Shown here one piece after another: positions 8,766 to 37,672 of a stretch of DNA of 43,505 bases; within the stretch, counting starts at the first letter, position 1, and each line of letters opens with the position of its first letter. The notes beneath the pieces are model-generated. The model made no database searches. It was not told where the DNA came from and was given only the letters and a program-made list of their open reading frames with translations. Position numbers and translations under genes: made by a program. This DNA comes from Pseudomonadota bacterium (lineage in GTDB: Bacteria > Desulfobacterota > Desulfobacteria > Desulfobacterales > RPRI01): assembly GCA_018901125.1 (NCBI GenBank), contig JAHIFE010000038.1:1-43505 (forward strand), written 5' to 3'.

Positions 8766-9596
8766 TTATCTGATCGTTTTATGGATTGGGATCTTAACTT
8801 TTAATTTCATAAAAAACAACCGAATACATAAGAACGTCAGACAGATAAAAGCACAAATCACCATCACTGTAGCAGCATGTTCCCAAAAAAGATTTCCGCT
8901 TTTTTTAAATCCGCCATTTAAGAATGGAACCCCCAGCGTTATAAGCCAGTACCAGATCATAGGAATCAAAATGTTTAAAGCCCGGTATTCTGCAAATGGC
9001 TGCAAAGACGTTTTGGCCTGTTCTGTTTTCTTTTTTACTGCTTTGAGTTGATATTTACGAAGAATCAATTGAACCGCAAAATAGGCACCATAAAGACAGG
9101 ACACATAAATAAAGATTCCTGCGGTCAGATGAATACGAGATGGTGTAAACCATCCTATATTAATCCGGGATTCATATAAATAAATGGATAAGATGATTCT
9201 AAAAGCGTTTATAACAAGCGTTATGACATACGAACCAGTCAGGCTGAAAAAAAACCATAAGAACTTTTCCTTATTATTATATAAGCAATGGGTTCCGTAA
9301 AAGGCAATCATGCAGAAAGAGATGATCATAAAATTTACACCTGCACAAGCGGGTGCTATGACAATGCTGTGTTTACGACAGATAAACCCCTGATCTTTTT
9401 CCAGTTCAAAATCAACCGGCAAAACCATTTCCACCAGACCTGCCGTCGGAGCCAGAATCCAAACCAGATCATTCGCATCCGCATGGCTGTAATGATATTT
9501 AAGACCAAAAGCGATAACCAGTGCAATTGCAAAAAAAACAAGATTTTGCGGAAGAAAATATCTTTTTAAAAAAATCTCTTTCATAATTTTATCCAT
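8766..9596 (-). CDS. xrtK: Exosortase (XrtK-like)
   Basis: A 276-residue polytopic membrane protein with the exosortase/archaeosortase catalytic triad in order: C84 (APACAGVNFM), R133 (NAFRIILS) and H156 (RIHLTAGIF), all in or next to hydrophobic helices. Exosortases cleave and probably transfer proteins bearing a C-terminal PEP-CTERM-type signal at the membrane. The protein encoded immediately upstream (9723-11747) carries such a signal, so the two form a likely enzyme-substrate pair. I attach the K subtype because of this dedicated-partner layout next to a CreBC system; the subtype is less certain than the family. The start may instead be the ATG at 9584. Confidence 0.75.
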   Translation of the reverse strand: MDKIMKEIFLKRYFLPQNLVFFAIALVIAFGLKYHYSHADANDLVWILAPTAGLVEMVLPVDFELEKDQGFICRKHSIVIAPACAGVNFMIISFCMIAFYGTHCLYNNKEKFLWFFFSLTGSYVITLVINAFRIILSIYLYESRINIGWFTPSRIHLTAGIFIYVSCLYGAYFAVQLILRKYQLKAVKKKTEQAKTSLQPFAEYRALNILIPMIWYWLITLGVPFLNGGFKKSGNLFWEHAATVMVICAFICLTFLCIRLFFMKLKVKIPIHKTIR

Positions 9597-9722: not shown

Positions 9723-11747
9723 TTAATGTTTTCTAAAATCAGGTTTTGTCAACAGTACTTTTTTAAACATAGAAACACCGCCCGCAATAAAGGCAAACGC
9801 TATAATCAGGATCAATATATCCGGCTCCGGGACACTGGCCATGTCGCTGCCTACCGCAAGATTGGAAACATTTTCCGGTAATGGCAGTGGCTGGTCTACA
9901 TCCTTGCTATGTCCCTCAGGATTAACCACAACTTCACGGACTGCTACAAAAGAAGTGTTTGCAGTAAGCAGATTGTATGAAATCCCCAGAGACGTTACTT
10001 CTGCTTTATTCTCTTCACTGTTTGCATTGAAGTTAAAATCCGAAAGCTGCGCAATACGAGTTCTTGCCCACAAATATCTAAGAGCATGGTTTGTTTCCGA
10101 AGGTTTAGTATCAGATACATTGATTGTTTGCACATATTCTCCCGATCCGCTTTGTCCGCTAATTTCGATAACACCCTCTGCATGATTCCGGTATTTCCCG
10201 AACACAACCACCGGTCTTTTTGCAAATAGATCAGGGATACTTGCCGGTTCTACGTCATATGCGTCAAACCCCCATTTGTTGAGCTCAATGCCGGTTAATA
10301 CAGGAGACTGAATATACTGCCTGAATTTTTCTGCGATTTGATTGGATTCTTCCGGTTTTGTAACAATAAAGGGTTCGCCCAATCCAGCTTTAGCAATGCC
10401 TTCTATCAGATATCGGTTTACACTGCTTCCGATACCGAAAGAAAAAACGTTTGTCCGGTTAAGGTTGTTATGAATCAGATCAAAAACATCCTTTTCAGCA
10501 CTGATATAGCCGTCTGTCACGATTATAATACTTCTTGAAAATGATTCATCCTTGTCAATATCCATGCCCCTTTTTAATGCTGCGTATAACTCCGTGCCGC
10601 CTCCGCCGGATTGCTCATCTATCAATTGTATAGCCTTATCAATATTCTCCTTATTTGCAGGGAATGAATAAGGCGACATTAACTGTGAACAACCCGAAAA
10701 TAATATCACATTAAATTTGTCGGTTGACCGGAGATTTCCGATAAGATTTCTTAGAAGTTGCTTGGAAGTATTTAAAGGAAAACCGTGCATAGAGCCTGAA
10801 ACGTCAACTATAAATATATATTCACGTCCCGGAATATCTTCCGGCAAAACCCGTTCCGGCGGTTGAACCATAAGCAGAAAAAAGTTTTCGTCTTCACCTT
10901 CATAGAGCAAAAGCCCTGATTCAATTTCTTCCCCAGCCAGTCGGTATTTTAAGATATAATCCCGGTTTCCGCCAAAATCTTCCGGGTTTTCCAGGCTGAT
11001 ATCGGCAACGGAATCACTTTCATAGTTAATATTGGTTTTATGCGATGTGCAAACCACTTCCTGAAGCGCAATTCCTGTTGAGACATGTGAATTAATATTA
11101 AAAATCGTATGAGGCAAAGCTCCTTCTTTAAGATAGGGATTTTTAACCCATAGATCGGTTTCAGGCGATTTCGCTTCCACCTGGCTGGAATAGCGGGGCC
11201 CCACAACCGTTGGGTAGACAAATGAATAAATACCGTCTGTAGGCACCAGAAGCTCCGTATACCTTAATTCAACACTGATCGAAGCATCCGGCATAATATT
11301 AGCCACATTCATGGAAAAAACATTGGGTCTCTGCTGTTTTAGCAGAGTTGCGCTTTTACCTTGTCTTTTTGCCGTGTCAAAGGTCTTTTGGGCGGCTTGC
11401 CGTTCTTCAATCTTCGCATTGATTATCTCGTTTCCTATTATCATTTTCATACCGTGAACCGCGGCTCTGGTGGATGCCGGAAAAACATAGCTCGCACTAA
11501 TGGGTTTTGTCCCATTGTTTTTATACTTCTGCGCAACAACCACCTCAGCAATCACGCCCGTAATATTGACTGTCACGTTCGTTTCTTCCAGCGGAAAATT
11601 ATCGACAGAGGAATCACCGTTTTCGACATAAAAATAAGGCGAAAGTGTTTTGTCTTCTTCACCTTCCGCAAACCCTGTTGCGGTAAAACAAAAAACCAAA
11701 AAACCTGAGATTAGAATAATCCAACATCTTTTAAATTTAATACTCAT
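9723..11747 (-). CDS. VIT and vWA domain protein with PEP-CTERM-type sorting signal
   Basis: A 674-residue exported protein. It has a signal peptide (CWIILISGFLVFCFTATGFA) and an inter-alpha-trypsin-inhibitor VIT domain at about residues 35-170 (KYKNNGTKPISASYVFP). A von Willebrand A domain follows at ~308-480 with MIDAS residues DVSGSM (D315), GGGTELYAAL and VTDGY. The C-terminus has VPEPD, one hydrophobic helix (ILILIIAFAFIAGG) and a basic end (FKKVLLTK...FRKH), the layout of a PEP-CTERM sorting signal. The ATG at 11747 is chosen because GGGGGA precedes it; an upstream in-frame ATG at 11798 would push the signal peptide inward. It is the likely sole substrate of the neighbouring exosortase and probably ends up anchored at or beyond the outer membrane. 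Confidence 0.85.
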   Translation of the reverse strand: MSIKFKRCWIILISGFLVFCFTATGFAEGEEDKTLSPYFYVENGDSSVDNFPLEETNVTVNITGVIAEVVVAQKYKNNGTKPISASYVFPASTRAAVHGMKMIIGNEIINAKIEERQAAQKTFDTAKRQGKSATLLKQQRPNVFSMNVANIMPDASISVELRYTELLVPTDGIYSFVYPTVVGPRYSSQVEAKSPETDLWVKNPYLKEGALPHTIFNINSHVSTGIALQEVVCTSHKTNINYESDSVADISLENPEDFGGNRDYILKYRLAGEEIESGLLLYEGEDENFFLLMVQPPERVLPEDIPGREYIFIVDVSGSMHGFPLNTSKQLLRNLIGNLRSTDKFNVILFSGCSQLMSPYSFPANKENIDKAIQLIDEQSGGGGTELYAALKRGMDIDKDESFSRSIIIVTDGYISAEKDVFDLIHNNLNRTNVFSFGIGSSVNRYLIEGIAKAGLGEPFIVTKPEESNQIAEKFRQYIQSPVLTGIELNKWGFDAYDVEPASIPDLFAKRPVVVFGKYRNHAEGVIEISGQSGSGEYVQTINVSDTKPSETNHALRYLWARTRIAQLSDFNFNANSEENKAEVTSLGISYNLLTANTSFVAVREVVVNPEGHSKDVDQPLPLPENVSNLAVGSDMASVPEPDILILIIAFAFIAGGVSMFKKVLLTKPDFRKH

Positions 11748-11949
11748 AATATCCCCCTTTTGTTTGAAAGTTAAAAGCTGCAATTTTGATATTTTCAATT
11801 AATGGGGATTATGGATTTGAAATATGAAATGATTATGAAATGAAAATGAAATTTTGAAGAAAAATTGAGGATACAAAAGTTTAGGGTTTTAATTTTAAAA
11901 CTTACTTATACGGCTGTAAAAATTTATCATGTGCAATGGAAGCCGGGCT

Positions 11950-21395: not shown

Positions 21396-21537
21396 GAGCC
21401 ACTTTCAAAACGTTTCAGTTTGGTCAAGGTCAAGGCGGATGAAAATTTTAACCGCACGAATACATGGAGTATTTCGAGGATTAAAAATTTCACCCAACGC
21501 AGAGATCGGCCAAAATGGGACGTTTTGAAACTGGCTC
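21396..21537 (-). mobile_element. MITE-like palindromic element, copy A (142 bp)
   Basis: Starts GAGCCACTTTCAAAACGT and ends ACGTTTTGAAACTGGCTC, an inverted terminal repeat of about 28 bases. It lies in the opposite orientation to the other copies. It is flanked on both sides by ATTA, a 4-bp target-site duplication, and sits between convergent genes (amidohydrolase and etfB). Confidence 0.85.
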
Positions 21538-27999: not shown

Positions 28000-28560
28000 G
28001 TGAAAAAATTAATGCTGATCAATATTTTAATTTGTGTGGCTCTTATTGCAGGATGCCATTCGAGATCGCAAGCCCCGAAATCAGAAAAATATATGCAGGA
28101 AGACAACGGGGTTAATGCTGATATTATATCTGAAACTGCTACAGGAGACAAAAACCTTAACATATCTGTTTTAATGGATATAGGAGATGATAATTTGTCT
28201 CAGCCTCAGATTGATCAGAGGGAACAGTTGAATGACTGGATGGGCAAGGATCTCGTAAGAATGCTAAATAAAGCAGGCTATAAAGCGAATCTGATTGAAA
28301 AACGCAGCCAGCATAAACCCGGTATTTATCTACTTAAAGTTACCATTGTCAGATATAGTGCTGGAAGTAAAGCCGCACGAATAATTGTTGGATTCGGTGC
28401 CGGAGCGGTTTCTCTTGATACACGGTATGAACTTTTTGCGCCATCTGGTAATCTTATTCTTTCTGATGAGCATGGGGTTGGCTCAAGTATTGAATGGACA
28501 TCCTGCGCAAGAAAATTAAATAAACAAACTCTTAATGCAGTTTCAAACAAAATTAAATAG
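28000..28560 (+). CDS. DUF4410-type lipoprotein
   Basis: A 186-residue lipoprotein. The GTG start at 28000 is supported by GGGAGG upstream; a lipobox (LIAGC) with C19 follows a short signal peptide. The body resembles DUF4410: a predicted alpha/beta core with LVRMLNKAGYKANLIEK and LLKVTIVRYSAGSKAARIIVGFGAGAVSL, the latter a glycine-rich hydrophobic hairpin seen in this family. Function unknown; members are periplasmic or outer-membrane lipoproteins. A MITE copy is inserted three bases after its stop codon. Confidence 0.65.
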   Translation: MKKLMLINILICVALIAGCHSRSQAPKSEKYMQEDNGVNADIISETATGDKNLNISVLMDIGDDNLSQPQIDQREQLNDWMGKDLVRMLNKAGYKANLIEKRSQHKPGIYLLKVTIVRYSAGSKAARIIVGFGAGAVSLDTRYELFAPSGNLILSDEHGVGSSIEWTSCARKLNKQTLNAVSNKIK

Positions 28561-28563
28561 TAG

Positions 28564-28706
28564 GAGCCAGTTCCAAAACGTCCCATTTTGGCCGATCTCT
28601 GCGTTGGGCGAAAAATATTAATCCTCGAAATACCCCATGTATTCCTGCGGTTAAAATTTTCACCCGCCTTGACCTTGACCAAACTGAAACATTTTGAAAG
28701 TGGCTC
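28564..28706 (+). mobile_element. MITE-like palindromic element, copy B (143 bp)
   Basis: Begins GAGCCAGTTCCAAAACGT and ends TGAAAGTGGCTC. Exact 4-bp duplication GTAG on both sides. The left copy of the duplication overlaps the stop codon (TAG) of the DUF4410 gene, so the insertion fell exactly at the gene end without disrupting it. Confidence 0.85.
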
Positions 28707-29207: not shown

Positions 29208-29250
29208 ATATTTCACAAAACAATTATGACGGTTTTCACTGACAACAAAA
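29208..29250 (+). promoter_or_regulatory. Shared upstream motif pair of the 36-residue-repeat genes (copy 1)
   Basis: ATATTTCACAA at 29208-29218 and TTCACTGACAACAAAA at 29235-29250, 16 bases apart. Both blocks recur unchanged with the same spacing upstream of the second repeat gene (31626-31668). This strongly suggests a common operator/promoter or common ancestry of the two upstream regions. Distance to this gene's start codon is 172 bases. Confidence 0.6.
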
Positions 29251-29422
29251 CGGAAATATATTACAAGTAGGACAAACAGAGAAAAGCAATGTTAACTAAA
29301 ATAAAACATAAAGATTAAACCACAAAACGCATATAGAAGATAAAATACCTGTATTAAGGAGTTGTGGCGGTTTCAGTGGTTTTTATCTTGGTAATAGGCG
29401 GAAATGTATAAGGAGGTTACTT

Positions 29423-31477
29423 ATGAATAATATTCAAAAAATTCTGTCTGTAGCAATAACCGGCCTTTTGTTAAATTCGACAGTGGGGTATGCCGGTTCG
29501 GATATAAAAGGAGCTGTTGTAAACACCTCGAATACAAAGAATAAGGTTAACGTTGCTTTAGGTTCTGATAGCAAAGCCAATCTTGATTCAGTAGCGTTGA
29601 AGAACAGTAGCGTTACAGGTGCGGTAATAAATACTCCCGCAGGGAAAACTTCCGTAAACGTTGCCCTCGGAAGCAACAATAAGGCAAACCTCAGTTCAGT
29701 TAACATGGAAGGAAGCAGTGTAAAAGGAGCTGTTGTTAATACTTCTGCAGGACAGACCAGTACTAATGTTGCTTTAGGGAGTTCTAATGCTGCAAACCTT
29801 GGGGCTACAAATATGAAAGGAAGTGACGTTAAAGGAGCTGTGATTAACACGGCAGCCGGTCAGGTACTGACTAATGTTGCTTTAGGAAAAGACAATAAAG
29901 CCAGTCTTGGAGCAACCAATTTGGAAGGAACAAGTGTAAAGGGAGCGGTGGTAAATACTGCAGCGGGCCAGGTTCTGACAAACGTTGCTTTGGGAGCCGG
30001 GAATAAAGCCAGCCTTGGCGCAGTAGATATGAAAGGAAGCGATGTTAAAGGAGCTGTGATTAACACGGCAGCCGGCCAGGTACTGACCAATGTTGCTTTA
30101 GGAAAAGACAATAAAGCCAGTCTTGGTTCTGTTGAAATGAAAAACAGCGAAATTAAAGGTGCTATTGTTAATACTACTGCGGGACAGGCAGTTACCAATG
30201 TTGCAATTGGAGCTGGAAATAAAGCTGATCTTGGCGCTGTCAATATGAGTTCAAGCAGTATGAAAGGGGCTATCGTAAACACTACTATGGGTCAAGCAGT
30301 TACAAATGTTGCGATTGGAAAAGATAACAAAGCCAGTCTTGGAGCTGTGAATATGGAATCGAGCAACATGAAAGGAGCTATTGTAAACACAACAATGGGT
30401 CAAGCAGTTACCAATGTTGCAATTGGAGCCGGTAACAAGGCCAGTCTTGGTGCCGCTGACCTTAAAAATAGTGATGTGAAAGGCGCAATAGTAAATACTT
30501 CAGTTGGAGCTGCTTTAACAAATGTTGCCATAGGTAAAGATAATAAGGCCGGACTTGCTTCAGCGAATATAGAAGGCAGTAATGTTAAGGGCAATATAAT
30601 CAACACAGCAGCAGGCGGAGCTGTAACTAACGTTGCAATAGGAAAGGGAAATAAAGCGAATCTGTCTTCTGTTGATATGAAAAACAGCACTATGAAAGGA
30701 AACATTGTAAATACAGCAGCAGGTGGAGCCGTAACTAACGTTGCTATAGGCAGTAATACCAAAGCAAGTTTATCTTCTGTTGATATGAAAAATAGTAATA
30801 TGAAAGGAAACATTGTCAACACAGCAGCAGGTGGAGCTGTAACAAATGTTGCTATAGGCAGTAATTCTGCGGCAAATTTATCTTCTGTTGATATGAAAAA
30901 CAGCACTATGAAAGGAAACATTGTAAATACAGCAGCGGGTGGAGCCGTAACTAACGTTGCTATAGGCAGTAAATCCAAAGCAAATCTTTCTTCAGTTAGT
31001 ATGGAAAACAGTAATATGAAGGGAAATATAACAAATACAACTGTTGGAGGGGCTGTAACTAATGTTGCTTTAGGCAGCAATACAAAGGCTAATTTAGGCT
31101 CTGTGGATATGAAAAACAGCAATGTGCAAGGAAATATTTCAAACAGGGCGGCAGGAGGAGTTATGACAAATGTTGCTGTAGGAAGCAATTCCAAGGCAAA
31201 TCTTGGTTCGGTTGTTCTTGAAAATAGTACTGTGCGTGGCAATATATCAAACAGGGTCAGCGGAGGTGCAGTAACAAATGTTGCTGCAGGATCAGGAAGC
31301 GAAGCAAATTCGGGATCCGTTATTGTTAAGAATCGTGACATAGGAGGCGCTAGCACAAGTTCAGGAACAGGTCTTGTTATCAATGACGTCAGGGTTCCTT
31401 TCGGTGGAATGGGTGTTCATAACACCAATGTTGCTATAGGTGGAACTTCAAACAAAAATTCAGTTGTTTACAAGTAA
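29423..31477 (+). CDS. Exported 36-residue tandem-repeat protein, candidate fibre subunit (large)
   Basis: A 684-residue protein with a Sec signal peptide cut near GYA-GSD (residue 24/25). From residue 30 to 641 it is exactly 17 tandem repeats of 36 residues with no net insertion or deletion, followed by a divergent 43-residue tail ending NKNSVVYK. A typical unit reads GAVINTAAGQVLTNVALG then KDNKASLGSVEMKNSEIK. The protein has no aromatic residues in the repeats and is rich in Gly, Ala, Asn, Val, Ser and Thr. The invariant core N-V-A-x-G-x-x-x-x-A-x-L resembles curli-type G-x-x-N-x-A spacing. I infer a beta-solenoid or amyloid-like extracellular polymer subunit; the family itself I do not recognise. 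AAGGAGG precedes the ATG. CsgG-like and LPP20-like genes downstream suggest its export route. Confidence 0.85.
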   Translation: MNNIQKILSVAITGLLLNSTVGYAGSDIKGAVVNTSNTKNKVNVALGSDSKANLDSVALKNSSVTGAVINTPAGKTSVNVALGSNNKANLSSVNMEGSSVKGAVVNTSAGQTSTNVALGSSNAANLGATNMKGSDVKGAVINTAAGQVLTNVALGKDNKASLGATNLEGTSVKGAVVNTAAGQVLTNVALGAGNKASLGAVDMKGSDVKGAVINTAAGQVLTNVALGKDNKASLGSVEMKNSEIKGAIVNTTAGQAVTNVAIGAGNKADLGAVNMSSSSMKGAIVNTTMGQAVTNVAIGKDNKASLGAVNMESSNMKGAIVNTTMGQAVTNVAIGAGNKASLGAADLKNSDVKGAIVNTSVGAALTNVAIGKDNKAGLASANIEGSNVKGNIINTAAGGAVTNVAIGKGNKANLSSVDMKNSTMKGNIVNTAAGGAVTNVAIGSNTKASLSSVDMKNSNMKGNIVNTAAGGAVTNVAIGSNSAANLSSVDMKNSTMKGNIVNTAAGGAVTNVAIGSKSKANLSSVSMENSNMKGNITNTTVGGAVTNVALGSNTKANLGSVDMKNSNVQGNISNRAAGGVMTNVAVGSNSKANLGSVVLENSTVRGNISNRVSGGAVTNVAAGSGSEANSGSVIVKNRDIGGASTSSGTGLVINDVRVPFGGMGVHNTNVAIGGTSNKNSVVYK
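29510..31345 (+). repeat. 17 tandem 108-bp coding repeats
   Basis: The DNA repeats with a period of exactly 108 bases, encoding 36 residues. Neighbouring units differ mostly at third positions and at the residues after NVA-x-G (KDNKAS, AGNKAS, SNTKAS, SNSKAN). Units 1-10 carry GAxxNT and units 11-16 mainly GNIxNT, so two sub-families expanded in blocks. Confidence 0.9.
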
Positions 31478-31625
31478 TTTAATTCGACAAAAGGCTATAA
31501 ATAAACAACGCTATGCTAAGAAGGGTTATTTCTTTACAAATTAATAATTATATGATTTATGCCGTTGATGTGCATAGAAAGGAGAGAATAAAAACAGATA
31601 AAAATCGATAGCATTATTAAAGTAA

Positions 31626-31668
31626 ATATTTCACAATAATAGTGAGTAATTATTCACTGACAACAAAA
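31626..31668 (+). promoter_or_regulatory. Shared upstream motif pair of the 36-residue-repeat genes (copy 2)
   Basis: ATATTTCACAA at 31626-31636 and TTCACTGACAACAAAA at 31653-31668, with the same 16-base spacing as at 29208-29250. Distance to the start codon is 77 bases. Confidence 0.6.
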
Positions 31669-31685
31669 ACTATAGCAAGTATAAA
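31657..31685 (+). promoter_or_regulatory. Sigma70-like promoter candidate for the small repeat gene
   Basis: CTGACA at 31657-31662 (inside the shared motif), a 17-base spacer and TATAAA at 31680-31685. This would place the shared ATATTTCACAA block just upstream of the -35 element, where an activator commonly binds. The equivalent -10 for the large gene is weaker (TACAAG). Confidence 0.4.
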
Positions 31686-31745
31686 TAAACTCAAAACCAA
31701 GGTGTAAATTTAACAACAACAACAACAAACAAGAAGGAGTGTAAA

Positions 31746-32564
31746 ATGAAAAAAGCGTTATTAGTAATCGGTGTTCTTTTTATTAGTGTTTCAATGGCTT
31801 ATGCAGGTTCTGATGTAAAGGGTGCCATAATCAACAAGTCTGATGTAAAAGGTGCAGCAAACGTAGCAATGGGCGAAGGCGCCACTGCTGACATGGGTAC
31901 AGTCAAGATGAAAGATTCTAGCCTGAAAGGCGCTATTATCAATCAGTCAAGTGTAAAGGGTGCAGCCAACGTAGCAATGGGCAAAGGCGCAACAGCTCAG
32001 ATGGGTACTGTTGATTTAAACAAGTCTGATGTAAAGGGTGCTATCATCAATCAGTCTGATGTAAAGGGTGCAGCCAACGTAGCAATGGGCCAGGATGCAA
32101 CAGCTCAGATGGGTACTGTTAGTATGGACAAATCTGACCTTAAAGGTGCTATTATCAACAAGTCAAGTGTAAAGGGTGCAGCCAACGTAGCAATGGGCAA
32201 AGGCGCAACAGCTCAGATGGGTACTGTTAGTATGGATAAATCCAGTGTAAAGGGTGCTATCATTAATCAGTCTGATGTAAAGGGTGCAGCCAACGTAGCA
32301 ATGGGCCAGGATGCAAAAGCTCAGATGGGTACTGTTAGTATGGATAAATCTGACCTTAAGGGTGCTATTATCAACAAGTCAAGTGTAAAGGGTGCAGCCA
32401 ACGTAGCAATGGGCAAAGGCGCAACAGCCAGGATGGGTACTGTTAGTATGGATAAATCCAGTGTAAAGGGTGCTATCATCAATCAGTCTGATGTAAAGGG
32501 TGCAGCCAACGTAGCAATGGGAAAAGGTGCTGAAGCCAATATGGGTTCTGTAGTGGTTGAATAG
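31746..32564 (+). CDS. Exported 36-residue tandem-repeat protein, candidate fibre subunit (small)
   Basis: A 272-residue protein with a signal peptide cut at AYA-GSD (residue 20/21), giving a mature start GSDVKGAIIN very like the large protein's GSDIKGAVVN. Residues 26-241 are six exact 36-residue repeats and 242-272 a seventh cut at 31 residues. A unit reads GAIINKSDVKGAANVAMG then EGATADMGTVKMKDSSLK. Compared with the large protein the G-A-x-x-N, N-V-A-x-G and G-x-V positions are kept, but N is replaced by A after the glycine turn and Met is common. Units alternate between KGATAQ and QDATAQ types, so a 72-residue double unit has duplicated recently. AGAAGGAG precedes the ATG. It is probably a partner or paralogue of the large subunit (for example nucleator versus major subunit); which is which is unknown. 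Confidence 0.85.
   Translation: MKKALLVIGVLFISVSMAYAGSDVKGAIINKSDVKGAANVAMGEGATADMGTVKMKDSSLKGAIINQSSVKGAANVAMGKGATAQMGTVDLNKSDVKGAIINQSDVKGAANVAMGQDATAQMGTVSMDKSDLKGAIINKSSVKGAANVAMGKGATAQMGTVSMDKSSVKGAIINQSDVKGAANVAMGQDAKAQMGTVSMDKSDLKGAIINKSSVKGAANVAMGKGATARMGTVSMDKSSVKGAIINQSDVKGAANVAMGKGAEANMGSVVVE
31821..32561 (+). repeat. Tandem 108-bp coding repeats (6 full, 1 partial)
   Basis: Period 108 bases with a higher-order 216-base period; long blocks such as GGTGCAGCCAACGTAGCAAT recur unchanged in nearly every unit, indicating recent expansion or gene conversion. Confidence 0.9.
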
Positions 32565-32591
32565 TTGTGATTCTAAAGTTTAAAGATTAAT

Positions 32592-32630
32592 ATTGGTAAG
32601 GCTGCCGTTGTTTGTTGCAGCCTTACCAAT
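32592..32630 (+). terminator. Perfect 14-bp hairpin after the small repeat gene
   Basis: ATTGGTAAGGCTGC at 32592-32605 pairs perfectly with GCAGCCTTACCAAT at 32617-32630 around an 11-base loop. It begins 27 bases after the stop codon. No T-run follows, so it may protect or process the transcript rather than terminate it outright. Confidence 0.6.
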
Positions 32631-32668
32631 AAGTACAGACAAATATACGAAGTACAGACAAATATACG
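32631..32668 (+). repeat. Tandem 19-bp direct repeat
   Basis: AAGTACAGACAAATATACG occurs twice with no spacer (32631-32649 and 32650-32668), directly abutting the hairpin. It could be a slippage duplication or a regulatory iteron. Confidence 0.75.
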
Positions 32669-32855
32669 TTGCTAACTGTTTAATAAATCAGTTAAAACAA
32701 CAAGCGCTTTTTGAAGCCCCTCATAATCAATGATAAAACAGATATTTTACTATGGGGCGTAGACGACCATATTCCAAATAATATAGCATAGCCGTTTTGC
32801 TATAATGCACTTTATGTAACAAACGTTTTAGATTATCAGTTGTAAGGGGGGGTAT

Positions 32856-33191
32856 ATGTTTAAGAAATGGCTTATGTTGTTTTGTTGTGTTATTATCGTT
32901 CCGGTTACGTTTGCAGGATACTGCCGAGGTGATGACCTGGATGATGAGATTTCGACATATACTGATGATTCTGTAAGTAAAGACGATGAAATGGGTAAAA
33001 AAGACAATAATATCAATTTTATTGTTCTTGAAGCTATTGCAGCTGCAAAAATGAAAGCAAAACAGGGCGATCAGGCGGCTTCAGGAAAAAGCGGTAGCGG
33101 TGATATAACGGGAGATAAGAATGAGAACAGTGTCGTGGTAGGTCCTGGTACCCAAACTGGAAATATATATAACATTCAGATTATGAAATAA
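32856..33191 (+). CDS. Small secreted protein with amyloid-like C-terminal motif
   Basis: A 111-residue protein with signal peptide (KKWLMLFCCVIIVPVTFAG). The mature part opens with an acidic segment (DDLDDEISTYTDDS) and a short amphipathic stretch (FIVLEAIAAAKMKAKQG). The last ~30 residues are polar and Gly/Asn-rich (GDITGDKNENSVVVGPG, TQTGNIYNIQIMK). The alternation N-S-V-V-V-G-x-G-x-x-x-G-N-I-Y resembles short beta-arch amyloid motifs, so a nucleator or cap role is possible; this is inference. I recognise no family. GGGGGG precedes the ATG. It sits between the repeat genes and the CsgG-like gene, the position an accessory factor would take. Confidence 0.6.
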   Translation: MFKKWLMLFCCVIIVPVTFAGYCRGDDLDDEISTYTDDSVSKDDEMGKKDNNINFIVLEAIAAAKMKAKQGDQAASGKSGSGDITGDKNENSVVVGPGTQTGNIYNIQIMK

Positions 33192-33265
33192 GATGTGGTG
33201 GAATCTGTTTTGTTCTAACTATCTGCAGCTTTTTCAAATAAAATATTCTTATTAAAGAGGGGGAA

Positions 33266-34645
33266 ATGAAATACATATTCTGGAATAATAAAGCCTGCAA
33301 GAAAATGCAAAATATTTTGACTATAATATCATTTTCCTTGCTTCTTGCTTCTTGTGCGTCAGTCGATCCGGCAAAAACTGATGTTGAACTTAAAACCGAG
33401 CCACCTGCTGCACAGATCACTACATTTACGCAGGCTCTTGCGGACCTGGGCTTGATGACGGAAATTTATAATGTTGACGTTGTTAAAATCCAGAGTAATC
33501 CTATAGGGGATAATACCGGCGCAGCTGGCGCTACCGGAGCAGAAATACCGAGAGATATAACCGAAATGATAAAGAGCTGTCTTAATTCAATCGGTGGGAG
33601 AGTTACCTTTATTCCTTATGATCCTTCATTTATTCAAAACCAGATGGTAACCGGTTATTCCAGCTTTGATGAAAAACTTATACCTGATGTGGTAATAAGT
33701 GGCGGTATTACAGAGTTTGACAGGGGTTTGGAAACAAGGGGTGATGGCACTGATGTCAGTGCCGGTGCCGAGTTTACCGGGTTGCCTGATTATCTTCCTT
33801 CAAAGGAAGTTAAACTCAGGTATGGAGATGCCGGGAAAACTGGCTTGGCCAGCATAACTCTCGATTTTAACCTTCTTAATTTCAGAACTATGGCAGGAAT
33901 ACCCAGAATGAGCTCAATTAACAGTATGAAGGTATCAAAAGCCATGAATGAAAGGGAATTAGGAATAAGCCTTTTTGGCCAGACTTTCGGAAGAAAGGGT
34001 TCTATCAAGAAGGTTCAGGGAAGGCACCATGCGGTAAGGCTTCTTGTTGAGTTGAGTATGATCCAGATTGTTGGAAAATACAATGGCCTTCCTTATTGGA
34101 CGTTGCTCGGTGAAGATGCGATGCCTGATAAGGACGTAGAAAGTGCTGTAAAGAAGTTTTACTACAAACTATCTGATTCAGACCGATTGTTCAAGATTCA
34201 GGAATGGCTGTATCTCCACGGATATGAAGTTGTGCTTACTGGTCAGCTTGATAATGCGACTGTTTCTGCATTAAAACAGTTTGACAGCAGCTATAATCCG
34301 GCAAATAAAATAGATGCGGATATATTCCTTAAAATATATGCTTCAATTCCTATAAAAGAAAGTACATTAGGCAGAAGAAACCAGCTGGATAGGATAATGG
34401 GCCAGGCTCCTCAAGCAGTTGAAGCCAGCAGTGTACCTGCTCAGCAACCGCCTATGCAACAAGCAGCCCAGGCAGCCGCACCTCAACAATCGGCACCTGT
34501 TGCCGCTCAGGCTGCACCACAGCCTGCTGCTGCTCCGGCTGTATCAAAGCAGCAACGAGCTGTTGCTGCCCCTGCTCCGGCCGCTGCTAGCAGTGTGAGG
34601 AAAAAGAGTGCTATCGGTAGAATACTTACAGATGAAGAGTGGTGA
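33266..34645 (+). CDS. CsgG/HfaB-like outer-membrane secretion lipoprotein with PG-binding-like domain
   Basis: A 459-residue lipoprotein (lipobox LLASC, C30). Residues ~50-282 have the layout of CsgG-type channels: IYNVDVVKIQ, a helix before FIPYDPSFIQNQMVTG, DVVISGGITEFDRGL (compare I-x-x-G-x-I-x-x-Y-E), a variable Gly-rich membrane-hairpin region, ASITLDFNLLNFRT, and a final helix RHHAVRLLVELSMIQIVGKY. Residues ~300-360 resemble a PG_binding_1 domain (LFKIQEWLYLHGY, TGQLDNATVSALKQF). The tail is Ala/Gln/Pro-rich (381-445). CsgG assembles a nonameric pore that exports curli; HfaB does so for the Caulobacter holdfast. Here the extra domain could anchor the pore to murein. I see no CsgE or CsgF. 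The CsgG assignment rests on motif layout only. Confidence 0.55.
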   Translation: MKYIFWNNKACKKMQNILTIISFSLLLASCASVDPAKTDVELKTEPPAAQITTFTQALADLGLMTEIYNVDVVKIQSNPIGDNTGAAGATGAEIPRDITEMIKSCLNSIGGRVTFIPYDPSFIQNQMVTGYSSFDEKLIPDVVISGGITEFDRGLETRGDGTDVSAGAEFTGLPDYLPSKEVKLRYGDAGKTGLASITLDFNLLNFRTMAGIPRMSSINSMKVSKAMNERELGISLFGQTFGRKGSIKKVQGRHHAVRLLVELSMIQIVGKYNGLPYWTLLGEDAMPDKDVESAVKKFYYKLSDSDRLFKIQEWLYLHGYEVVLTGQLDNATVSALKQFDSSYNPANKIDADIFLKIYASIPIKESTLGRRNQLDRIMGQAPQAVEASSVPAQQPPMQQAAQAAAPQQSAPVAAQAAPQPAAAPAVSKQQRAVAAPAPAAASSVRKKSAIGRILTDEEW

Positions 34646-34650
34646 TATAT

Positions 34651-35247
34651 ATGGGCTTATGCCGCAGGATTGTTTCTGCTGTAATTATTATTTTTATAAT
34701 ATGCCTTTGTACCTCAGCGTTTGCCGGGAATAAGAAAATGGTAATCAATAGAACTGAGGAAATGGATGAGCAAAATAAACAAATGGTCAGACAGATTCCA
34801 AACTTGCCGGAAACGGGTAAAATTGATGCAAAAGCCAGAGTTGTTAATGAGGGTGGCAATTTAATATTTGATATTTACCATGTTAAAACATCTGTTAAGG
34901 AAGAAAGTATTGACCTTAGCGGGAAGCAGCAAAAAGAAGAAGCAAAAGAGGAGTTAACTTCAGAACCTGAGAAAAAAAAAGATAGTTCAAACTTAAACGG
35001 CAATCAACAAAAAGAAGAAATAAAAGAGGATTTAAACTCTGATATACTGGATAAGAATGAAAACCTTAATATAGTTCGTGAACAAAGTGAAGAAGGAACA
35101 AAGCAGGAGATAATATCTGATACTCAGGGGAAGAATAAAGATAATAAAATTATAAATGATAAGCAGCAAAAAGAGTTAGCAAGTGAGACAACAGTAACCA
35201 ATATTCAGAAACAGGGTAATGCCGGCTCGTTAGAATTAAACGAATAA
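34651..35247 (+). CDS. Secreted charged low-complexity protein
   Basis: About 198 residues. The ATG at 34651 is used; a GTG at 34639 inside the previous gene is possible. A signal peptide (VSAVIIIFIICLCTSAFA) is followed by GNKKMVINRTEEMDEQNKQM, then a long hydrophilic Glu/Lys/Gln/Asn region with three loose repeats around KQQKEEAKEELTSE, NQQKEEIKEDLNSD and KQQKEL. It is probably disordered. The mature start AGNKKM is shared with the next protein (35356-36099), which suggests a common sorting or processing context. No family recognised. The start lies six bases after the CsgG-like stop, indicating co-transcription. Confidence 0.6.
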   Translation: MGLCRRIVSAVIIIFIICLCTSAFAGNKKMVINRTEEMDEQNKQMVRQIPNLPETGKIDAKARVVNEGGNLIFDIYHVKTSVKEESIDLSGKQQKEEAKEELTSEPEKKKDSSNLNGNQQKEEIKEDLNSDILDKNENLNIVREQSEEGTKQEIISDTQGKNKDNKIINDKQQKELASETTVTNIQKQGNAGSLELNE

Positions 35248-35355
35248 ATATCTGAATAGCAAACATAATAAATAATATTTATTGATCAGGTGAAAAAGAA
35301 ATAAATAAGACGACAAAGGCCATGAATTACTCCAAAAAAACAGGAGGTAAGCTGT

Positions 35356-36099
35356 ATGATTTCTAGATGTTTTAAAAGTATTTTAATTTTGTTGATTTGT
35401 TTGACATTTTCAGCGCCCAACGTATTAGCCGGTAATAAAAAAATGATGGCTATCATGGCAGCAAAAAATGATGCGATGAGGGGGCTAACAGAACAGGTAT
35501 ATGGCCTTAAAATCCGTTCCTCTGAAGAAGTAAAAAATATGGCTGCTGATAGCTATATCGGAACTACCGATTCCAAAACATCAGCAACCATGTCAGGAAT
35601 TAAGATTTCGGATGTAATCTATGATCCAAAACAAGATATCGCAAGAGCCACAGCAACAATGACCTCAAACCAAATTGTAAATATTGAGGGTGCAAATGTT
35701 GCTTTAAGTGGCAAGGTATTTAAACATGTTGGTTTTGGGGCAAGCTCTCCTTCTAGTGCCGGACCTTTGAGAGCTTTAAGAGCAGCTCAGATTGATGCAT
35801 ATAAACAATTGGCGCAACAAATAGCAGGTTTTACTCTTGAAAGCCAGTCAACAGTAGAAAATTACATGCTTAAATCAGATTTTATTAAGACAAAAGTACA
35901 GGCATCACTTGCTTTTGCTGAGGTTGTGGACTTTGGATGGGATCAGTCTGGTGACGCCTATGTAAAGATGGTAATAAAGGTAGATGACGTGGCAGCTATG
36001 CTTGGTGAACCTGTTGTAGGCGCCGGAGAACTTGTCGAGGTAGAAGGACAGGGTGCCATGAAAAATGATTTCAGTAAACCTAAGGCCGCTAAGAAATAA
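35356..36099 (+). CDS. LPP20-like periplasmic/outer-membrane protein
   Basis: A 247-residue protein with a cleavable signal (ILILLICLTFSAPNVLAG) and no lipobox. It carries two LPP20-like segments (PF02169 type). The first is degenerate (residues ~30-110, AAKNDAMRGLTEQVYGLKIR ... ISDVIYDPKQDIARATATM). The second is clear (~135-215, LRALRAAQIDAYKQLAQQIAG ... FAEVVDFGWDQSGDAYVKM). LPP20 proteins such as FlgP and FlgO form outer-membrane rings or support surface structures. A C-terminal lysine-rich tail ends the protein. AGGAGG precedes the ATG. Next to a CsgG-like pore, an outer-membrane or pore-accessory role is reasonable. Confidence 0.7.
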   Translation: MISRCFKSILILLICLTFSAPNVLAGNKKMMAIMAAKNDAMRGLTEQVYGLKIRSSEEVKNMAADSYIGTTDSKTSATMSGIKISDVIYDPKQDIARATATMTSNQIVNIEGANVALSGKVFKHVGFGASSPSSAGPLRALRAAQIDAYKQLAQQIAGFTLESQSTVENYMLKSDFIKTKVQASLAFAEVVDFGWDQSGDAYVKMVIKVDDVAAMLGEPVVGAGELVEVEGQGAMKNDFSKPKAAKK

Positions 36100-36180
36100 T
36101 AAACAGTTAGTTTAGCTGGTAATAAAATAATTGATGCCCAGTATTTGCTAACACAATCCCGATGAATATTATATGATATA

Positions 36181-36237
36181 AAAATCCCCTTCTTATCCCT
36201 TCTTTATATGAAGGTGTCGAGACGGGGATTTTTTTTT
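36181..36237 (+). terminator. Rho-independent terminator after the LPP20-like gene
   Basis: AAAATCCCC at 36181-36189 pairs with GGGGATTTT at 36224-36232, with an internal CTTC/GAAG helix. An uninterrupted T-run ends at 36237. It closes the likely operon containing the CsgG-like, charged and LPP20-like genes. Confidence 0.8.
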
Positions 36238-36393: not shown

Positions 36394-36535
36394 GAGCCAA
36401 TTGCAAAACGGCCTATTGTGGCCGATCTCAGCGTTGGGTTAAAATTTTAATCCTTAATAAACTCTATGTATTCCTGTTGTTAAAGTTTTAGCCCGCCTTG
36501 ACCCTGACCAAATTGAAATGTATTGAAACTGACTC
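36394..36535 (+). mobile_element. MITE-like palindromic element, copy D (142 bp, most diverged)
   Basis: Begins GAGCCAATTGCAAAACGG and ends GTATTGAAACTGACTC. Similar along its full length to copies B and C but with more substitutions, including in the right terminus. No exact 4-bp duplication remains (TATT left, CTGT right), as expected for an older insertion. Confidence 0.8.
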
Positions 36536-36683: not shown

Positions 36684-37475
36684 ATGAAATCAAATAGATA
36701 TTTTATATTAATACTGTTTATTATTTCTATTGTAATGCTGTTTGCCATAAAACAAACTTATGCTGGCGGAATATCCATAAATTTAGGTGATGGCAGTGCT
36801 GGGGATATATCAATTGATGGAGGTGTAGCACGTTCTGGGAATATATCAATTGATGGGAACGTAGTAAACTCTGGCGGTACTGGCTGTGGTAACGGTATTG
36901 AGGGAAATGGAATTGATAAGACAGAAAAAAGAAGCGTATCGACATTTACATCTGTAGAGGTAGACGGAGCTTTTAATGTTTATATCGAATGCCAAAAGAA
37001 AAATAGCATAGAGGTTAGAGGTGACAGTAATATATTGCCTTATATAACAACAAAAGTAAAAGGGAATACTCTGCAAATTACTTCGAACAGAACAATATGT
37101 CCAAAAAAATTACTGGAAATCAAAGTATCTGCCGATAATATAGAAAGAGTTTCTGTATCGGGTGCTGTTGATCTTTCAATTTCCGGTGTAAATAATAAAA
37201 GTCTTGATATTGAGGCAGATGGGGCAGTAGATATAAAAGCATCCGGGAAAACAAAGAATTTGAAGATTAGTGTATCCGGGTCAGGCGATGTGAAAGCAAA
37301 AGAGCTTAAAGCTGAAAATGTAGATGTGTCGGTTAACGGAGCCGGAGATGCGGTCGTATACGTTTCACAAAAACTAAAAGCGGAGATAAACGGAGCCGGA
37401 GATATTACATACTATGGTAACCCTAAAGAAGTAATTAAAGATGTTTCCGGAGCCGGAGATATTATAAAAAGGTAG
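36684..37475 (+). CDS. DUF2807 (head GIN domain) secreted beta-rich protein
   Basis: A 263-residue protein with signal peptide (YFILILFIISIVMLFAIKQTYAG). The mature N-terminus has two short repeats (GDISIDGGVARS, GNISIDGNVVNS). From residue ~78 it matches the DUF2807/head GIN pattern: FTSVEVDGAFNVYIECQ, SIEVRGDSNILPYI, then repeating V-S-G-x-x-D strands (VSVSGAVDLSISG, ISVSGSGDVKAKE, VSVNGAGDAVVYV, AEINGAGDITYYG, VSGAGDIIKR). These form a right-handed beta-helix in known structures; function is unknown, sometimes annotated as an adhesin head. AAAGGAG precedes the ATG. It is separated from the fibre locus by a terminator and a MITE, so membership in the same system is uncertain. Confidence 0.8.
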   Translation: MKSNRYFILILFIISIVMLFAIKQTYAGGISINLGDGSAGDISIDGGVARSGNISIDGNVVNSGGTGCGNGIEGNGIDKTEKRSVSTFTSVEVDGAFNVYIECQKKNSIEVRGDSNILPYITTKVKGNTLQITSNRTICPKKLLEIKVSADNIERVSVSGAVDLSISGVNNKSLDIEADGAVDIKASGKTKNLKISVSGSGDVKAKELKAENVDVSVNGAGDAVVYVSQKLKAEINGAGDITYYGNPKEVIKDVSGAGDIIKR

Positions 37476-37530: not shown

Positions 37531-37672
37531 GAGCCAGTTTCAAAACGTCCCATTTTGGCCGATCTCTGCGTTGGGTGAAAATTTTAATCCTCGAAATACT
37601 CCATGTATTCCTGCGGTTAAAATTTTCATCCGCCTTGACCTTGACCAAACTGAAACGTTTTGAAAGTAGCTC
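37531..37672 (+). mobile_element. MITE-like palindromic element, copy C (142 bp)
   Basis: Begins GAGCCAGTTTCAAAACGT and ends ACGTTTTGAAAGTAGCTC; exact 4-bp duplication TGAT on both sides. The two arms pair along almost the entire length around a central CATG (for example TGAAAATTTTAA in the left arm with TTAAAATTTTCA in the right), so the whole element can fold into one long imperfect hairpin. Confidence 0.9.

What the first reader, a model, noticed from the sequence alone, without database searches (positions are those of the whole stretch)
29208..36237. Candidate undescribed curli-like fibre export locus
Six consecutive plus-strand genes (29423-36099) all encode exported proteins. Two have perfectly periodic 36-residue repeats with N-V-A-x-G-x-x-N-x-A cores. 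They are followed by a small secreted Gly/Asn protein, a CsgG/HfaB-like lipoprotein, a charged secreted protein and an LPP20-like protein, closed by a Rho-independent terminator at 36181-36237. Curli and holdfast loci pair repeat subunits with a CsgG-type pore. Here the subunit repeat is 36 rather than ~22 residues, and no CsgE, CsgF or CsgD-like protein is visible. The combination suggests a separate class of surface fibre or functional amyloid.
Basis: partly seen in the sequence, partly recalled or inferred. Interest (0 to 1): 0.88.

Follow-up and report, generated by a model that had tools for sequence, protein, structure and literature searches.

The report
CsgG-type locus for solenoid surface fibres
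A cluster of six genes in a draft bacterial genome looks like a machine that pushes long, regularly folded repeat proteins through a curli-type pore to the cell surface, probably to build a fibre unlike the known curli and Fap fibres; no experiment has been done on it.

Summary
Six plus-strand genes at 29423-36099 read as exported proteins, in order: two 36-residue repeat proteins, a small protein, a CsgG/HfaB-like lipoprotein, a charged protein and an LPP20 protein, then a terminator. The lipoprotein model matches CsgG best among solved structures; sequence support is weak. The shorter repeat protein is predicted with high confidence as an uncapped beta-solenoid, one rung per 36 residues. The set is conserved: 15 of 19 relatives of the lipoprotein gene have a repeat gene within about 3 kb, a genome of the L004 (Nitrospiraceae) phylum sample has the same six-gene order, and the 9 distinct genomes with repeats in three samples all carry the lipoprotein. 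CsgE, CsgF and curlin repeats were not found. The repeat meets neither the published curli nor the Fap minimal motif, but its long form misses the Fap one by one residue of spacing. I read it as a third arrangement of amyloid/solenoid fibre secretion: CsgG-type pore, own subunits, own accessory proteins. Locus identity is well supported by comparison; export route, fibre and amyloid nature are inferred.

The parts
29423..31477 (+). P1: long, capped repeat subunit, 684 aa; 17 x 36-residue units (residues 26-637) and a C-terminal cap ending SNKNSVVYK
   Evidence: cap found once per genome in 11 of 24 genomes
31746..32564 (+). P2: short, uncapped repeat subunit, 272 aa, 7 rungs; predicted beta-solenoid
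32591..32631 (+). RNA hairpin (15 pairs) between the repeat genes and the rest; candidate mRNA-stability or attenuation element
   Evidence: -24.0 kcal/mol, z -6.0, 0 of 200 shuffles as stable; function inferred
32856..33191 (+). P3: small secreted protein, 111 aa; C-terminal NxNSVV motif like the P1 cap
   Evidence: no Pfam family at E<=0.01 in 16 members; hhalign to P1 cap prob 58, E 1e-4 over 20 columns
33266..34645 (+). P4: CsgG/HfaB-like outer-membrane lipoprotein with a peptidoglycan-binding-like domain and a Pro/Ala-rich tail, 459 aa
   Evidence: lipobox by eye
34651..35247 (+). P5: charged secreted protein (listed ORF begins at GTG 34639); conserved in about its first 100 residues only
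35356..36099 (+). P6: LPP20-domain protein related to the flagellar ring lipoprotein FlgP, 247 aa
   Evidence: Pfam LPP20 4.7e-9, 16 of 16 members at E<=0.1; profile to PDB: putative lipoprotein 9hmf 2.7e-6, FlgP 8z5n 9e-4
36180..36233 (+). Rho-independent terminator

Best explanation
The locus encodes an outer-membrane export and assembly line for a beta-solenoid surface fibre. All six proteins leave the cytoplasm by Sec (signals read from the sequence). P4 is sorted as a lipoprotein to the outer membrane, where it forms a CsgG-type oligomeric pore tied to the cell wall by its peptidoglycan-binding-like domain; P6, a relative of FlgP, makes a periplasmic collar on it; P3 and P5 take the places of CsgE/CsgF as small accessory proteins (all inferred). 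P1 and P2 pass through P4 unfolded and fold outside into beta-solenoids of one 36-residue rung per layer. P2-type subunits have a whole number of rungs and no caps, so they can stack end to end into one continuous solenoid; the single-copy P1-type subunit carries a C-terminal cap and would begin or end the fibre, as CsgB is known and FapB proposed to nucleate CsgA and FapC. Likely role: attachment or biofilm matrix (inferred).
For: CsgG fold: Foldseek's 25 best PDB rows for the P4 model are all CsgG or curli secretion-complex entries (E 3e-7 to 5e-5); VIA-align Z 16.1 over 198 residues at rmsd 6.9. Weak sequence support in the 19 members of the P4 alignment (window and 18 relatives): Pfam CsgG in 10 of 19 at E<=10, best 3.7e-4; NCBIfam HfaB in 11 of 19 at E<=1, best 1.5e-4; PG_binding_1 in 8 of 19 at E<=10, best 4.4e-5. 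P2 model: mean pLDDT 92.7, mostly 95-98 through the repeats, five short strand stretches per rung (the fifth two to three residues). Rung count: from first rung to C-terminus 18 of 23 uncapped subunits with a recognised start measure exactly 36n-1 residues, n = 2 to 10; with the one residue left after the presumed cleavage site the mature protein is 36n. Cap: one place in each of 11 of 24 genomes, while G307 has three uncapped genes. Co-occurrence. P6 and FlgP.
Against: No experiment. The window's P4 itself lists PG_binding_1 below its cut-off and no CsgG or HfaB, the genome search with Pfam CsgG does not ring on it, and hhalign of its family with E. coli CsgG alone is weak (prob 19, E 0.0013). 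The P4 model is of middling confidence (mean pLDDT 64), with uncertain stretches in the part that would hold the membrane hairpins; other proteins with the same core fold (FlgT, TolB, LptE) reach Z 9 to 11.6. Solenoid folding was predicted, polymerisation was not tested. Whole-unit gain and loss by recombination would keep rung phase without selection for stacking, and the sequences are related. One relative (L017/G313) has P4 but no repeat gene in its draft genome. Roles of cap and helpers are assigned by analogy.
Confidence: 0.58

Rival explanations
1. P1 and P2 are exported by P4 but are single folded solenoid adhesins or a surface coat, not subunits of a polymer.
For: VIA-align's best matches for the P2 model are beta-helix proteins such as Vag8 and pertactin (Z 15.2 and 13.2); long P1-type proteins of up to about 23 rungs could be adhesins on their own; DUF2807, described as a putative adhesin domain, lies next door.
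Against: P2-type subunits have no cap at either end and, in 18 of 23 rows, whole rung numbers; one has only two rungs (93 aa with signal, L059), too small to be a stable solenoid alone (inference).
Confidence: 0.22
2. It is a holdfast-type anchor: the CsgG/HfaB-like pore places repeat proteins on the surface to hold a polysaccharide, as HfaABD does in Caulobacter.
For: HfaB is the commonest NCBIfam match among P4 members (11 of 19 at E<=1). HfaB, HfaA (curlin-like) and HfaD form an outer-membrane anchor (PMC6707917, passages read).
Against: P1-P3 list no HfaA or HfaD family of NCBIfam at E<=5; I recognise no polysaccharide synthesis or export gene in the window (by reading, short ORFs not covered).
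Confidence: 0.12
3. The repeat proteins stay in the periplasm and P4 and P6 form an envelope ring like FlgT/FlgP of flagella.
For: FlgT is the next fold after CsgG for P4 (Foldseek 5.6e-4; Z 11.6, 144 residues at rmsd 3.7); P6 is FlgP-like.
Against: CsgG scores above FlgT in E-value, Z and aligned length (its rmsd is larger); I recognise no flagellar gene in the window (by reading); repeats and P4 go together.
Confidence: 0.06
4. P1 and P2 are pentapeptide-repeat proteins.
For: P1 scores 23.8 bits to Pfam Pentapeptide, over its cut-off of 20.2, though no single stretch passes.
Against: Identity at lag 5 and lag 20 is at background (9% and 9% in P1) against 64% at lag 36, which is not a multiple of 5.
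Confidence: 0.02

Closest known systems
Curli (CsgA/CsgB with CsgG, CsgE, CsgF)
   Same: Repeat subunits rich in Asn and Gly, a CsgG-fold outer-membrane lipoprotein, small accessory proteins, two related subunits.
   Different: CsgE and CsgF not found (0 of 24 genomes) nor Curlin_rpt (0 of 23); 36- not ~22-residue repeat; curli motif QxGxxN absent from P1 and P2 (one occurrence in 22 repeat proteins, in L004); P4 has a peptidoglycan-binding-like domain; LPP20 protein added.
Fap (FapB/FapC with FapF), Pseudomonas
   Same: Repeat of similar length (38-39), an N-V-A-x-G-x-x-N core (FapC: N-psi-a-a-G-x-g-N, PMC12392863), two subunits, one layer of five short strands per repeat.
   Different: Fap minimal motif G-x4-N-x3-G-x6-N absent from 22 of 22 proteins; G-x4-N-x3-G-x5-N occurs instead in 7 of 8 P1-type rows (9 in P1) and in 0 of the other 14. 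Repeats are contiguous, 2 to about 23, not mostly 3 with linkers. Pore is CsgG-type, not the FapF channel (FapF recalled, not compared). The repeat profile does not match the FapC chains of the PDB at E<=10.
Holdfast anchor HfaABD, Caulobacter
   Same: HfaB is the nearest named family by sequence for P4's relatives.
   Different: No HfaA or HfaD match listed for P1-P3; different small proteins and repeats.
FlgT/FlgP flagellar rings
   Same: FlgT fold next after CsgG for P4; FlgP among the nearest for P6.
   Different: No flagellar gene recognised in the window; partner proteins are solenoid repeats.

Membership tests
Curli system | CsgG-fold outer-membrane lipoprotein | tested here: met
   (fold); lipobox by eye; sequence weak
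Curli system | Curlin repeat subunits (PF07012; motif X6QXGX2NX10) | tested here: not met
   PF07012 in 0 of 23 genomes at E<=0.1, E. coli control positive; QxGxxN 0 times in P1 and P2
Curli system | CsgE (PF10627) | tested here: not met
   0 of 24 genomes at E<=0.01, E. coli control positive; draft genomes
Curli system | CsgF (PF10614) | tested here: not met
   0 of 24 genomes at E<=0.01, E. coli control positive; draft genomes
Fap system | FapB/C repeat G-x4-N-x3-G-x6-N, mostly three with linkers | tested here: not met
   0 in 22 of 22 repeat proteins examined; no match of the repeat profile to FapC chains 9u4u and 9nqd at E<=10
Fap system | FapF, FapA, FapD and FapE partners | not tested
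   no model was run
Holdfast anchor (HfaABD) | HfaB | tested here: inconclusive
   NF037935 in 11 of 19 members at E<=1, best 1.5e-4, not in the window protein; its cut-off was not shown
Holdfast anchor (HfaABD) | HfaA and HfaD | tested here: inconclusive
   no such family listed for P1-P3 at E<=5 in NCBIfam; whether models for both exist there was not checked
Pentapeptide-repeat proteins | five-residue period | tested here: not met
   lag-5 and lag-20 identity at background
Functional amyloid | cross-beta fibres, dye binding, detergent resistance | not testable with these tools
   needs protein

The most novel reading that the evidence does not exclude
A third class of bacterial solenoid/amyloid fibre, separate from curli and Fap: a CsgG-type pore tied to the cell wall and ringed by an LPP20/FlgP-like collar secretes subunits whose mature length is a whole number of 36-residue rungs, so that uncapped subunits of any size stack into one seamless solenoid, with a single-copy capped subunit at one end.
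Probability: 0.42. Interest if true: 0.82.

Novelty: new variant of a known kind. Interest (0 to 1): 0.68.

Why it matters
Few bacterial fibre-secretion routes of this sort are described (curli, Fap; the holdfast anchor is a relative). A route with a CsgG-type pore but without curli's known helpers, shared by genomes that I take from their record titles to be Desulfobacterota and Nitrospirota, would show which parts of curli secretion are essential. Its modular subunits (2 to about 23 rungs of one size) would be a simple material for fibre design and for testing how repeat number sets fibre growth.

Tried and rejected
Pentapeptide repeats: rejected on period. Single-sequence PDB search with P4 gave nothing relevant, and a profile search mainly ribosomal-protein matches to the C-terminal part, no CsgG. 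P1 matched no PDB sequence at E<=10. Pfam hits of P2 (ATP_synth_reg and others) I take for composition matches. P3 against E. coli CsgF and CsgE: nothing. Repeat profile against E. coli CsgA: prob 2.4, E 0.019, not taken as homology. Foldseek of the P2 model gave no match at E<=0.001; CsgA and FapC were not among the 50 rows shown, which excludes nothing. No RNA family in the window at gathering scores or around the locus at E<=1, so no known riboswitch was found. Promoter-like sites are no more than chance (37 against 31.8, sd 5.9). Plasmid search with P4: one distant match, Azospirillum, 24%.

Literature: ten searches of open-licence PMC papers; several lists were cut at 12 of up to 2,329 papers. 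No title or abstract start that I saw describes this locus. Subscription papers and most preprints are absent, so this is a limited check. A 2025 review reports curli and Fap operons in Desulfobacterota and Nitrospirota (PMC12822426, passages read); whether any of its hits overlap this locus could not be checked, but curlin repeats, CsgE and CsgF were not found in the genomes here.

ORFs under 50 residues were not searched.
Full report
What is there. The window is one whole contig (C78) of a draft genome of 4.45 Mb. Between secA and valS (my reading of the translations) lie six plus-strand genes at 29423-36099 with a terminator at 36180-36233. P1 holds 17 and P2 holds 7 consecutive units of exactly 36 residues. 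Identity at lag 36 is 64% and 71% against a best shuffled lag of at most 15% and 19%. Units differ from each other mostly at third codon positions, so the repeat is maintained as protein. A 15-pair hairpin follows P2.

The pore protein. P4 alone shows no CsgG match in Pfam and is not found by the Pfam CsgG model in its own genome, where ten other places pass the cut-off. The alignment of P4 with 18 relatives does better, but weakly: CsgG in 10 of 19 members at E<=10 (best 3.7e-4) and NCBIfam HfaB in 11 of 19 at E<=1 (best 1.5e-4). An AlphaFold2 model from those 19 sequences (mean pLDDT 64; parts of the core over 80) gives CsgG or curli secretion-complex entries as the 25 best Foldseek matches (E 3e-7 to 5e-5), then FlgT at 5.6e-4. 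VIA-align gives Z 16.1 to CsgG (198 residues, rmsd 6.9) and 11.6 to FlgT (144 residues, rmsd 3.7); TolB, LptE and other proteins with the same core lie at 9 to 11. The parts of the model that would correspond to CsgG's membrane hairpins include uncertain stretches. After the CsgG-like part comes a helical domain that matches PG_binding_1 in 8 of 19 members at E<=10 (best 4.4e-5) and a Pro/Ala-rich tail. Direct comparison with E. coli CsgG is weak (prob 19, E 0.0013), so kinship rests mainly on the fold.

The subunits. P2 with 10 relatives gives a confident model: mean pLDDT 92.7, mostly 95-98 in the repeats, five short strand stretches per 36-residue rung (the fifth of two to three residues), a regular beta-solenoid. 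Foldseek finds no solved match at E<=0.001; VIA-align's best are general beta-helices (Z 15.2 to Vag8), near the range where repeats match by arrangement only. Repeat proteins fall into two kinds. Capped ones like P1 end in a conserved stretch closing with S-N/H-K-N-S-V-V-x-K; the cap profile matched at one place in each of 11 of 24 genomes, and two further weak matches fall inside P3 genes. Uncapped ones like P2 end at the last residues of a rung. From the first rung to the C-terminus, 18 of 23 uncapped subunits with a recognised start measure exactly 36n-1 residues, with n from 2 to 10; one residue remains in front of the first rung if the signal peptide is cut where I read it, so the mature chain would be 36n. 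This fits stacking without a seam, but whole-unit recombination would also preserve the phase, and the proteins are related. P3's C-terminal half resembles the cap (hhalign prob 58, E 1e-4 over 20 columns).

The other parts. P6 has an LPP20 domain in 16 of 16 members of its alignment at E<=0.1, and its profile matches a putative lipoprotein of known structure (2.7e-6) and FlgP (9e-4), a flagellar ring protein. P3 has no Pfam family at E<=0.01 in any of 16 members. P5 is conserved only in about its first hundred residues.

Conservation of the set. A scan of genome contigs, based on six short P4 peptides, returned 19 loci. With profiles built here, a repeat gene lies in 14 of 19 loci, P3 in 15, P5 in 10, P6 in 15 (a weak P6-like match 3 kb away on the other strand in L005 is not counted); a 15th repeat gene, cut by the contig start of L012, shows. 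Of the four loci left, L002 starts 194 bases before P4 and L009 389 bases before P3; the L009 genome has a repeat gene that ends 321 bases from the end of another contig, and the L016 genome has P1-P2-P3 ending 357 bases from the end of another contig. L017 has no repeat gene in its genome. G521, from the phylum sample around L004, has P1-P2-P3-P4-P5-P6 in the same order as the window. L004 and L010, titled as Nitrospiraceae and Thermodesulfovibrionia, have repeat-P3-P4 only, with diverged repeats of about 38 residues. The smallest common set is therefore repeat, P3 and P4. Phylum names in this report are inferred from record titles.

Do repeats occur without the pore? In 297 genomes of the window's phylum, repeats were found in 3 and P4 in 7 at E<=1e-5, 4 of them below 1e-100. 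All 3 with repeats are among those 4; the fourth, G281, has two diverged repeat genes directly before P3 and P4. G138 and G165 have distant P4 relatives (1e-25, 3e-23) and no such repeats; G260 matches only in the peptidoglycan-binding part. In 295 genomes of the phylum of L004's genome (which include the genomes of L004 and L008), repeats were found in 3 and P4 in 5, all 3 included; the other two are G490, where the P4 frame is short and near a contig end, and G399, which matches only in the peptidoglycan-binding part. In 395 genomes around G299, which overlap the first sample, repeats were found in 5; P4 was not searched there, but was read next to the repeats in G935 and G994, G299 and G298 were known to have it, and G698's hit has the contig number and place of G090's. 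So 9 distinct genomes with repeats all have P4, near a repeat gene in 8; in G298/G232 the P4 contig starts 194 bases before P4. Five of the 9 had been found through P4; G090, G521, G935 and G994 had not been chosen for it. Several genomes also hold repeat genes away from the P4 locus: one search shows uncapped ones in G307 and G302 and capped ones in G307, G302 and G299.

What it is not. CsgF and CsgE were not found in 24 genomes and curlin repeats not in 23, each with E. coli as positive control. The curli minimal motif (from PMC3521004, passages read) is absent from P1 and P2 and occurs once in 22 repeat proteins (L004); the Fap minimal motif (from PMC3792158, passages read) is absent from all 22. 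Seven of the 8 P1-type rows have the Fap pattern with one residue less between the last Gly and Asn (9 times in P1, 0.23 in shuffles), none of the other 14 do. FapC's published consensus N-psi-a-a-G-x-g-N (PMC12392863, section 6 read) is close to N-V-A-x-G-x-x-N here, and FapC also stacks one repeat per layer in five short strands (same paper, passages read). The repeat profile does not reach the FapC chains in the PDB at E<=10 (chains identified), so this is likeness, not shown kinship.

How it most likely works. Shown by comparison: a CsgG-fold protein with a lipobox and solenoid repeat proteins form one conserved locus. Inferred: passage of unfolded subunits through P4, folding outside, end-to-end stacking of uncapped subunits, a capped subunit at one end, P6 as collar, P3 and P5 as helpers, and a role in attachment. 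The source title of one close relative (marine rock biofilm, L001) agrees with a biofilm role but proves nothing.

Verdict. Fibre and amyloid nature are open and easy to test.

Noticed in passing
L062:499-1605 (G000:C69); also L063:3900-4847, L092:1872-2822, L097:4396-5088: A FecR-domain protein (Pfam FecR 4.7e-11 in L062, 1.8e-13 in L063; the other two not scanned) with two to three of the same 36-residue repeats at its C-terminus, directly before a gene I read as lnt, in the window's genome and in three close relatives. It could be a cell-side anchor for the fibre.
   Followed up: partly
21493-21515(-), 28586-28608(+), 36416-36438(+), 37553-37575(+): A MITE-like element of about 144 bases; three copies aligned (88% mean identity), one with imperfect 28-base inverted ends; copies sit on both sides of the locus and elsewhere in the genome (L021, L025, L062), none in the ten relatives' loci examined.
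   Followed up: partly
8766-9596(-) and 9723-11798(-): An exosortase K gene (TIGR04287, 2.7e-37) beside a VIT/VWA-type protein (TIGR03788 marine sortase target, 2.2e-122, below its cut-off) whose C-terminus I read as a PEP-CTERM-like sorting signal: a second surface-protein system in the window.
   Followed up: partly
36684-37475: DUF2807 protein (E 2e-38) just past the terminator; a relative follows P6 in 5 of 19 related loci, so it may belong to the same function.
   Followed up: no
L060:8502-9800 and L061:8399-9703: In G138 and G165 a distant P4 relative follows small secreted proteins that end in a single rung-like stretch, beside a larger exported protein; perhaps a simpler relative of the system.
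   Followed up: no
L058:7530-9078 (G281): Two strongly diverged repeat genes with G-x-x-N-x-A-N-x-A-S-[IV]-like units before P3 and P4; one has a long Thr/Asn/Asp-rich stretch before its repeats.
   Followed up: no
G000, several contigs: The genome has ten places over Pfam's CsgG cut-off, none of them the P4 gene; their roles were not studied.
   Followed up: no
28000-28560: A DUF4410 lipoprotein (5e-11) between secA and the locus; an exported protein of similar beginning sits after a secA-like end in L091:1382-1978.
   Followed up: no
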